Assembly (NCBI GenBank): GCA_025531455.1
Contig: JAMYHL010000116.1
Coordinates: forward strand, 28,975 to 92,974
DNA length: 64,000 nt
From: Apiotrichum sp. Y4204
Lineage: Eukaryota > Basidiomycota > Tremellomycetes > Trichosporonales > Trichosporonaceae
Direction of reading: 5' to 3'
In this document: positions 63,523 to 64,000 of the stretch, in pieces
How positions within the stretch are numbered: the first letter of the stretch is position 1
Layout of the letters: each line of letters opens with the position of its first letter
The notes under the pieces: model-generated
Database searches by the model: none
Told to the model about the DNA's origin: nothing
What the model saw: the letters and a program-made list of their open reading frames with translations, nothing else
Translations under genes and position numbers: made by a program

Positions 63523-64000
63523 ATGAAGGTCGCCGCTCTCCTCGCTGCCCTCGTTGCCGGCGCTAACGCCGTCCTCGCCGCGCCCGCCGGTAAGTTCAAA
63601 GCTGCCCGCGTTCTACACCAGTCTTGGTGTTTCACAAGTGTGTGATCGCTGACTCTGCAGTCGAGAAGAGGGCCGCCGCTCCCGAGCCCCAGTGGGGTGC
63701 CGGAACCTGCGGTGGAAAGGCTTGCTGGAAGCGTGAGCCCGAGGCTGCTCCCGAGGCCGCTCCCGAGCCTCAGTGGGGTGCCGGAACCTGCGGTGGAAAG
63801 GCCTGCTGGAAGCGTGAGCCCGAGGCTGCTCCCGAGGCCGCCCCCGAGCCTCAGTGGGGTGCCGGAACCTGCGGTGGAAAGGCCTGCTGGAAGCGTGAGC
63901 CCGAGGCTGCTCCCGAGGCCGCCCCCGAGCCCCAGTGGGGTGCTGGAACCTGCGGTGGAAAGGCTTGCTGGAAGCGTGAGCCCGAGGCTGCTCCCGAGGC
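63523..64000 (+). CDS. Kex2-processed repeat peptide precursor (alpha-factor-like), truncated by window end
   Basis: Exon 1 (63523-63589) encodes a signal peptide MKVAALLAALVAGANAV plus LAAPA. A 71-nt intron (63590-63660, GTAAGT..CTGCAG) joins in frame to VEKR, a Kex2 site. Exon 2 then consists of repeats: the first copy is shorter at its N-side (AAAPEP), followed by full 27-residue units at 63735-63815, 63816-63896 and 63897-63977, and a fifth beginning at 63978. Each unit is a spacer EP-EA-AP-EA-AP-EP, a core QWGAGTCGGKACW, and KR. Every spacer dipeptide ends in Ala or Pro, as needed for Ste13-like dipeptidyl aminopeptidases. Kex1-like trimming of KR would release a 13-residue peptide with two Cys. 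The coding layout matches ascomycete alpha-factor and other fungal Kex2-processed repeat proteins. The 3' end lies outside the window. Confidence 0.9.
63735..64000 (+). repeat. 81-bp coding tandem repeat
   Basis: Three full 81-bp units and the start of another, plus a partial unit before them (63673-63734). Differences between copies are few and, in every case I can see, synonymous (CCC/CCT, GCC/GCT, GCT/GCC). This suggests the peptide sequence is constrained or the array has been homogenised. Confidence 0.95.

What the first reader, a model, noticed from the sequence alone, without database searches (positions are those of the whole stretch)
63523..64000. Alpha-factor-style repeat peptide precursor in a probable basidiomycete yeast
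Seen: signal peptide, KR site, and at least four copies of a core QWGAGTCGGKACW, each followed by KR and preceded by six X-Ala/X-Pro dipeptides. Known: alpha-factor precursors are matured by Kex2, Ste13 (removing X-Ala/X-Pro dipeptides) and Kex1. Filamentous-ascomycete alpha-pheromones start with or near W, carry two Cys and end in C or CW with a central Gly. Basidiomycete mating pheromones are instead farnesylated CAAX peptides. Inferred: the mature product is a 13-residue, possibly pyroglutamyl, disulfide-bridged peptide acting as a secreted signal. Either alpha-factor-like signalling exists outside ascomycetes or the likeness is convergent.
Basis: partly seen in the sequence, partly recalled or inferred. 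Interest (0 to 1): 0.92.

Follow-up and report, generated by a model that had tools for sequence, protein, structure and literature searches.

The report
Alpha-factor-like peptide family, basidiomycete yeast
The window ends inside a gene that encodes at least four identical copies of a 13-residue peptide, one of six related genes in the genome of a likely basidiomycete yeast in which no alpha-factor receptor was detected; the peptides are predicted to be secreted, cut free like yeast alpha-factor, and would likely act as signals through a receptor that is not yet known.

Summary
In detail: ATG 63523, a 71-nt phase-1 intron (63590-63660), then KR and four 81-bp repeats, each QWGAGTCGGKACW-KR behind X-Ala/X-Pro dipeptides. 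The contig ends inside the repeat. A homeologous contig (88% identical) has a complete copy, five repeats of QWGAGTCSGKACW. The genome (48.9 Mb) holds 12 such loci, six genes in pairs, 10 with unbroken frames, encoding related peptides (mostly WG...C[GS]...CW). Kex2-type and Ste13/Dap2-type genes occur at two loci each. No Ste2 was detected (search without positive control). STE3 sits ~0.5 kb from a Ste20/PAK-class kinase, a Tremellomycete mating-locus layout, so a basidiomycete is likely. The kind is known: Le Marquer 2019 reported one such precursor in Trichosporon oleaginosus. New here: the multi-gene family, its divergence between subgenomes, and a dipeptide register kept through a length difference. 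Beyond the last two residues, likeness to a Fusarium pheromone is not above shuffles, so descent from ascomycete alpha-factor is not shown. Most likely these are secreted signals read without Ste2; expression, receptor and function are untested.

The parts
63415..63422 (+). TATA-like element TATATTAA, about 100 bp before the ATG
   Evidence: by eye; the 500 bp upstream of the ATG are 93.1% identical to the homeologous copy (457 of 491 aligned bases). No transcript data.
63523..63589 (+). exon 1: start codon and predicted signal peptide MKVAALLAALVAGANAVLA-APA
   Evidence: signal peptide judged by eye (Lys near the start, hydrophobic core, A-x-A); 66 of 67 bases identical in C152
63590..63660 (+). 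71-nt phase-1 intron directly after AAPA
   Evidence: GTAAGT / CTGAC / CAG; a phase-1 intron at the same place after AAPA in paralogues C106 and C6 (56 nt); the C94, C139 and C102 genes have none
63661..64000 (+). exon 2, open to the contig end: repeat region
63666..63671 (+). first Kex2-type KR site (VEKR)
63672..63689 (+). three X-A/X-P dipeptides (AA AP EP)
63690..63728 (+). core 1 QWGAGTCGGKACW, then KR 63729-63734
63735..63770 (+). six dipeptides (EP EA AP EA AP EP)
63771..63809 (+). core 2 QWGAGTCGGKACW, then KR 63810-63815
63816..63851 (+). six dipeptides
63852..63890 (+). core 3 QWGAGTCGGKACW, then KR 63891-63896
63897..63932 (+). six dipeptides
63933..63971 (+). core 4 QWGAGTCGGKACW, then KR 63972-63977
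63978..64000 (+). start of a further spacer, cut by the contig end

Best explanation
This is a repeat precursor gene, one of a six-gene paralogous family in a likely Tremellomycete (Trichosporonales-type) yeast with two subgenomes, whose product is predicted to enter the secretory pathway and to be cut by Kex2, trimmed by a Kex1-type carboxypeptidase and by a Ste13-type dipeptidyl peptidase to release QWGAGTCGGKACW (QWGAGTCSGKACW from the other subgenome), which likely acts as a secreted signal to cells of its own kind through a receptor other than Ste2. Shown here: the repeats, spacers in dipeptide register, paralogues, homeologues, and genes of the processing-enzyme classes; the intron is modelled from its splice signals. 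Inferred: secretion, the cuts, and the signalling role. Unknown: receptor, expression, redox state of the two cysteines, and any link to mating.
For: Repeat architecture and intron. A complete copy on C152, collinear with the window; aligned blocks sum to 38.7 kb at 88.2% mean identity. Family of 12 loci, 10 with unbroken frames (C20 is cut by the contig end); in the five further locus pairs the main aligned blocks are 80-89% identical. Phase-1 intron after AAPA shared with C106/C6. Seven compared cores are more alike than shuffles that keep their last two residues (0 of 2000 reach the observed mean). Selection: cores C20 vs C152 pN 0.039 against pS 0.192; spacers pN 0 against pS 0.219. Register: the 10 distinct ladder spacers tested have A or P at every second place, including the 24- and 20-residue spacers of C106 and C6 (0 of 200000 shuffles each), a length difference that keeps register. 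Kexin-type S8 plus P domain (two loci; C114 copy read), DPP IV-type with N-terminal hydrophobic stretch and GWSYGG (two loci; C153 copy read), S10 carboxypeptidases at six loci. STE3 at two loci, on C13 about 0.5 kb from a PAK-class kinase. In print: in Agaricomycetes such precursors are processed to peptides (PMC9769878, passages).
Against: No transcript, peptide or phenotype. Ste2 absence rests on a six-frame profile search that rang in no control genome. The ladder is not universal: with KR cuts alone, the digest gives a clean core in 5 of 10 unbroken precursors (in C106 and C6 only for the second core); C94, C139, C102:478130, C57 and C153 need other cuts or fail. In one search I tested only spacers that looked like ladders, and four of the ten are too short to be informative (20-50% of shuffles also fit). 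The core shuffle test is partly circular, because paralogues were found by similarity. The intron is not shared by C94, C139 or the C102 genes. Two of 12 loci are broken, so parts of the family are dispensable. The C152 3' end is unclear. No relative was found in the protein database.
Confidence: 0.62

Rival explanations
1. The peptides are true mating pheromones of this yeast: an alpha-type signal beside the farnesylated one, sensed by an unrecognised receptor, used for partner or species recognition.
For: Architecture like ascomycete alpha-pheromone precursors; cores differ between the two subgenomes in several pairs (C20/C152 one residue, C57/C153 several, C94/C139 different core sets), as species-specific signals would.
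Against: Ste2-class receptors are reported only in Ascomycota over 1357 species (PMC12842992, passages) and none was detected here. The genome has STE3 beside a PAK-class kinase, parts of the usual basidiomycete system; its farnesylated pheromone gene was not identified. Six genes are more than mating would seem to need. Sexual reproduction has not been observed in any Trichosporonales (PMC6730849, passage).
Confidence: 0.15
2. The peptides are weapons or effectors: small Trp/Gly/Cys peptides that act on competing microbes or on a host rather than on the producer.
For: Multi-gene family with turnover of cores and broken members; Le Marquer names effectors as a non-exclusive option.
Against: The Ste13 ladder is, per Le Marquer 2019, absent from Rep1, from precursors of toxic cyclic tetrapeptides and from epichloecyclin precursors. 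The window core carries a single Lys and is otherwise uncharged. Purifying selection on C20/C152 cores.
Confidence: 0.13
3. RiPP precursor of the dikaritin/ustiloxin kind: the cores become cyclic, oxidised peptides.
For: Same precursor plan: signal peptide, repeats, Kex2 sites. In Umemura 2020, 17 of 76 precursors (22%) homologous to the six Basidiomycota 'pheromones' have a UstYa (DUF3328) gene nearby.
Against: No UstYa match in this genome (no positive control); no Tyr in the seven compared cores. In the same paper all 227 yeast alpha-factors and 98.6% of 216 fungal pheromones lack a nearby DUF3328 gene (PMC7329392, passages).
Confidence: 0.03
4. Structural surface peptides like Ustilago Rep1 repellents.
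For: Repeated secreted peptides cut by Kex2 in a basidiomycete.
Against: Rep1 peptides are 37 residues and lack the Ste13 signature; these cores are 12-18 residues, six of the seven compared with two Cys.
Confidence: 0.04
5. An ordinary ascomycete pheromone gene: the organism is an ascomycete, or the contig is a contaminant.
For: QW...CW ends and the ladder look like Sordariomycete precursors.
Against: The contig has a collinear homeologue in the same assembly. STE3 beside a Ste20-class kinase is a Tremellomycete layout. No Ste2 detected. Core spacing C-x4-C with the first Cys away from the first W differs from the Fusarium peptide WCTWRGQPCW. No rDNA or genome phylogeny was run.
Confidence: 0.03

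Closest known systems
KEX2-processed repeat protein of Trichosporon (Cutaneotrichosporon) oleaginosus, peptide QSWGGCGGRGTPCW (Le Marquer et al. 2019, PMC6339444; sections 8, 9, 15 read)
   Same: Likely the same order; Kex2 repeats with Ste13 signature; Q and W near the start, WG, C-G-G, CW end. Scores against the seven cores here are reached by 0-0.5% of full shuffles, and by 0.7-9% when the last two residues are kept.
   Different: C-x6-C there, C-x4-C in the window core; the main text names one precursor, here six genes. The precursor itself could not be compared (its sequence is in a supplement I could not read).
Ascomycete alpha-pheromone precursors (e.g. Fusarium WCTWRGQPCW)
   Same: Signal peptide, Kex2 sites, X-A/X-P ladder, Trp near the start, CW end, two Cys.
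   Different: Scores against the seven cores are reached by 0.7-7.3% of full shuffles but by 8.5-64.5% when the last two residues are kept, so likeness is carried by the CW end; no Ste2 detected; host likely a basidiomycete.
Agaricomycete KEPs with Ste13 signature (PMC9769878, passages)
   Same: Alpha-type precursor plan in basidiomycetes; processing to peptides shown there.
   Different: Cores not compared here; function unknown there too.
KEP type #205, Yarrowia plus Cutaneotrichosporon (Umemura 2020, PMC7329392, passages)
   Same: A pheromone-annotated type that includes a Trichosporonales yeast.
   Different: Sequences are in a supplement that could not be read.
Cryptococcus Qsp1 quorum-sensing peptide (PMC7537855, passages)
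   Same: Short secreted Gly-rich peptide ending in W from a Tremellomycete.
   Different: Likeness weak: of seven cores the best tail-kept shuffle fraction is 0.022, the others 0.115-0.66. Qsp1 is matured outside the cell by Pqp1 and imported by Opt1.

Membership tests
KEX2-processed repeat proteins (KEPs) | signal peptide | tested here: inconclusive
   clear by eye; no signal-peptide predictor available
KEX2-processed repeat proteins (KEPs) | near-identical internal repeats | tested here: met
   4.0 copies, period 81, 97% matches
KEX2-processed repeat proteins (KEPs) | Kex2 sites between repeats | tested here: met
   KR after each of the four cores
Alpha-type pheromone precursors (architecture) | Ste13 X-A/X-P dipeptides after the Kex2 site | tested here: met
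   3 or 6 dipeptides in register in the window gene
Ascomycete alpha-pheromone | Pfam MF_alpha / MF_alpha_N match | tested here: not met
   5 of the 12 family loci scanned at E<=1 (C152 for this gene), none matches
Ascomycete alpha-pheromone | core likeness beyond the C-terminal CW | tested here: not met
   tail-kept shuffles reach the Fusarium scores in 8.5-64.5% for seven cores (full shuffles 0.7-7.3%); one ascomycete peptide tested
Ascomycete alpha-pheromone | Ste2 receptor in the genome | tested here: inconclusive
   no PF02116 match, but no control genome rang
Ascomycete alpha-pheromone | acts in mating | not testable with these tools
   needs experiment
Dikaritin-type RiPP precursor | UstYa (DUF3328) enzyme | tested here: inconclusive
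   no PF11807 match, no positive control
Basidiomycete a-type pheromone | C-terminal CAAX | tested here: not met
   the C152 frame read to its stop without a further intron ends LMR, no CAAX; the 3' end is not settled
Qsp1-like quorum-sensing peptides | core likeness to Qsp1 | tested here: not met
   tail-kept shuffle fractions 0.022 for one core and 0.115-0.66 for six

The most novel reading that the evidence does not exclude
A basidiomycete yeast runs a second peptide language: six paralogous alpha-factor-style precursors release a set of related W-G...C-G...C-W peptides, matured by Kex2 and Ste13 but read by a receptor class other than Ste2, with cores that diverge between the two parental genomes of a hybrid and so could serve as a species- or density-specific code.
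Probability: 0.35. Interest if true: 0.8.

Novelty: new member of a known kind. Interest (0 to 1): 0.55.

Why it matters
Alpha-factor-style precursors in basidiomycetes are known, but their function and receptor are not (PMC6339444, PMC9769878). Six paralogous genes in one genome, with cores under constraint in one pair, spacers that keep dipeptide register through a length difference, and a genome without detectable Ste2, give a concrete set of peptides and genes with which to look for the function and the receptor. The two subgenomes supply two natural versions of most of the genes for the same test.

Tried and rejected
Protein database: no relative of the precursor (where only the 7994 candidates sharing most words were scored; the single hit P0001, E 0.13, shares only the EAAPEAAPE-type spacer) nor of a masked multi-core query (682 candidates, none at E<=10).

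DNA pattern for WG...C[GS]G...CW in the whole genome: 85 matches against 37 for the reversed control; 19 lie in family loci, 66 do not, so the control understates chance matches. Of the 66, C102:475202 and C152:97572 were read, show no KR next to the motif and no precursor-like frame, and were rejected; C1:31203 has the same letters as C102:475202 and was not fetched. The remaining 63 were not read.

Of the weak hits, C1:1598466 was read and rejected; C98:311270, C13:271684 and C125:178679 were not read, nor was C79:136558. So 12 loci is a count of what was found and read, not a ceiling.

Homeobox search for the second half of the mating locus: two sub-cut-off hits on other contigs, no support for or against Trichosporonales. 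CAAX pheromone near STE3: one 48-aa frame ending CVSA is present in both subgenomes (C13:121096-121242, C51:30121-30267), but lies just behind a zinc-finger frame on the same strand and is not counted.

Likeness to Qsp1: considered and dropped. Species identity: not settled; a survey of 33 Trichosporonaceae gives 16.4-42.4 Mb (PMC7026411, passages), this assembly has 48.9 Mb.

Kept open: an intron at the GTAAG...CTGAC...AG stretch of C57/C153; it would be only 33-39 nt and the frame is open without it.

Full report
What is there. The window's last 478 bases hold the 5' part of a gene. The start codon is at 63523. The first 67 bases encode a signal-peptide-like leader ending AAPA. A 71-nt intron (63590-63660, GTAAGT...CTGAC...CAG) is modelled in phase 1. 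Exon 2 opens with V-E-K-R and then repeats: core QWGAGTCGGKACW, KR, and a spacer EPEAAPEAAPEP. Four full cores are present before the contig ends. TRF gives period 81 and 97% matches. The contig, C20, ends at base 92974, which is window base 64000; the break lies inside the repeat.

The second copy. The same genome (48,889,515 bases, 182 contigs) has a homeologous contig, C152. Window 27397-64000 is collinear with C152:165500-205300; the aligned blocks of 150 bases or more sum to 38.7 kb at 88.2% mean identity, short internal repeat alignments included. The gene there (ATG 204823) has five repeats, all with G8 changed to S: QWGAGTCSGKACW. After the last KR the frame reads DEW and runs on 32 more residues unless an intron starts at the GTACGT there; two paralogues end KRDE-stop, so the tail is unsettled.

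The family. A protein search of the own genome and two more give 12 loci that form six pairs: C20/C152; C94/C139 (DSWGRGPCSGEACW; in C139 alternating with NSGWGQGGCGGHACW); C102:537465/C1:856283 (QWGGFGGGQRDPQW, no Cys); C102:478130/C10:91975 (single RWGGGCGGQPCW); C106/C6 ((QH)GFGGGGCGGGHNPVCW); C57/C153 (C-terminal QWG[TS]G[DG]C[SG][RG]NACW, plus an ALCRGTQCW-KR). Ten of 12 have unbroken frames (C20 is cut by the contig end); the C1 copy has an in-frame stop in the core and the C10 copy a frameshift and a lost final W. In the five further pairs the main aligned blocks are 80-89% identical. Evidence for common descent: similar leaders, a phase-1 intron directly after AAPA in both C20/C152 and C106/C6 (the C94, C139 and C102 genes have none), CW-KR ends, and core likeness: the mean pairwise score of seven cores (43.0) is not reached by any of 2000 shuffles, even when the last two residues are kept (maximum 27.2). 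That test is partly circular, since the paralogues were found by similarity. Five of the 12 loci were scanned against Pfam; none matches MF_alpha.

Processing. An in-silico digest of the ten unbroken precursors with KR cuts and Ste13 trimming gives the clean core for C20, C152 and C102:537465, and for the second core of C106 and C6. With cuts after ER before D or E it also gives the first cores of C106/C6, the two core types of C139 and the core of C94 (there without dipeptides, except one EA). For C57/C153 the ladder breaks at ESK; for C102:478130 a cut after SR would be needed. The ten distinct ladder spacers put into all carry A or P at every second residue. The long ones (24 and 20 residues in C106 and C6) differ by four residues and keep register; 0 of 200,000 shuffles of either do so. 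Four of the ten are too short to be informative (20-50% of shuffles fit). I chose these spacers because they are ladders, so the count is not a family-wide rate. The genome holds a kexin-type S8 plus P-domain gene at two loci (C114 copy read), a DPP IV-type gene at two loci (the C153 copy was read: 778-residue frame, N-terminal hydrophobic stretch, GWSYGG), and S10 carboxypeptidases at six loci, none assigned to Kex1. Whether these enzymes cut these precursors is inferred.

Selection. Between C20 and C152 cores pN is 0.039 and pS 0.192 (20 unit pairs, not independent), in spacers 0 and 0.219 (12 pairs); all nonsynonymous core change is at the G/S site. In the leader pN is 0.029 and pS 0.074. 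In C57/C153 the last core has pN 0.142 and pS 0.341 on 39 bases, against 0.055 and 0.117 before it. So one pair is constrained; the other is too short to tell. Repeats within a gene share the G or the S, which points to homogenisation.

Which organism. STE3 (PF02076) is found at two loci, C13 and C51, whose surroundings are 93% identical over 9 kb. About 0.5 kb from it on C13 lies a kinase frame whose best solved relatives are PAK1-3, i.e. Ste20 class. STE20 in the same mating locus as STE3 is described for Tremellales and Trichosporonales (PMC6730849, passages; also PMC9296135, passages), and hybrids with two subgenomes are known in Trichosporonales (PMC6730849; PMC7026411, passages). PMC6730849 also notes STE20 in the pheromone/receptor locus of some Pucciniomycotina, so the layout points to Basidiomycota first and to the order less firmly. 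STE2 (PF02116) gave no candidate, but the search rang in no control, so absence is likely and not proven; in print Ste2 is reported only from Ascomycota over 1357 species (PMC12842992, passages). A homeobox search did not find the second half of the mating locus. The species is open.

Prior art. Le Marquer 2019 (PMC6339444, sections 8, 9, 15 read) found in T. oleaginosus a precursor with QSWGGCGGRGTPCW and Ste13 signature and suggested a non-mating role. Umemura 2020 (PMC7329392, passages) lists a pheromone-annotated type shared by Yarrowia and Cutaneotrichosporon. PMC9769878 (passages) reports processing of such precursors in Agaricomycetes. The listings of four searches of an open-access library showed no report of a multi-gene family of this kind in Trichosporonales; supplements could not be read.

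Relation to ascomycete alpha-pheromone. Architecture is the same. The core is not demonstrably related: 0.7-7.3% of full shuffles of the Fusarium peptide score as high against the seven cores, but 8.5-64.5% do when the last two residues are kept. So 'made like an alpha-factor' is well supported by sequence; 'is an alpha-pheromone' is not.

Verdict. A real gene and a new member of a known kind, made more interesting by the family around it. Most likely role: secreted self-signal, read without Ste2.

Noticed in passing
window 29354-29791: Tandem repeats rich in CAG/TACGGCCAG units, likely a Gln/Gly/Tyr/Pro-rich coding stretch.
   Followed up: no
window 23849-25444 (-): 532-residue frame with R3H and RRM domains.
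   Followed up: partly
window 44969-46186 (-) and 56489-57352 (-): Exons of a GH3 glycosidase and of an MFS transporter; the MFS frame lies about 6 kb before the peptide gene.
   Followed up: no
C57:150046-150342 (L058) and C153 (L060): A two-peptide precursor: an ALCRGTQCW-KR segment identical in both subgenomes, and a C-terminal QWG...CW that differs between them and has no KR behind it.
   Followed up: partly
C102:537465-537755 (L054): A cysteine-free member, QWGGFGGGQRDPQW x3, with a similar leader and ladder; its partner on C1 is broken.
   Followed up: partly
C13:121096-121242 (-), C51:30121-30267 (-): A 48-residue frame ending CVSA near STE3 in both subgenomes; fits the CAAX search pattern of PMC6730849 but may be the tail of a zinc-finger gene.
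   Followed up: partly
G000 as a whole: 48.9 Mb with paired homeologous contigs where looked at: larger than the 16.4-42.4 Mb range of a Trichosporonaceae survey, so perhaps a hybrid outside that survey.
   Followed up: partly
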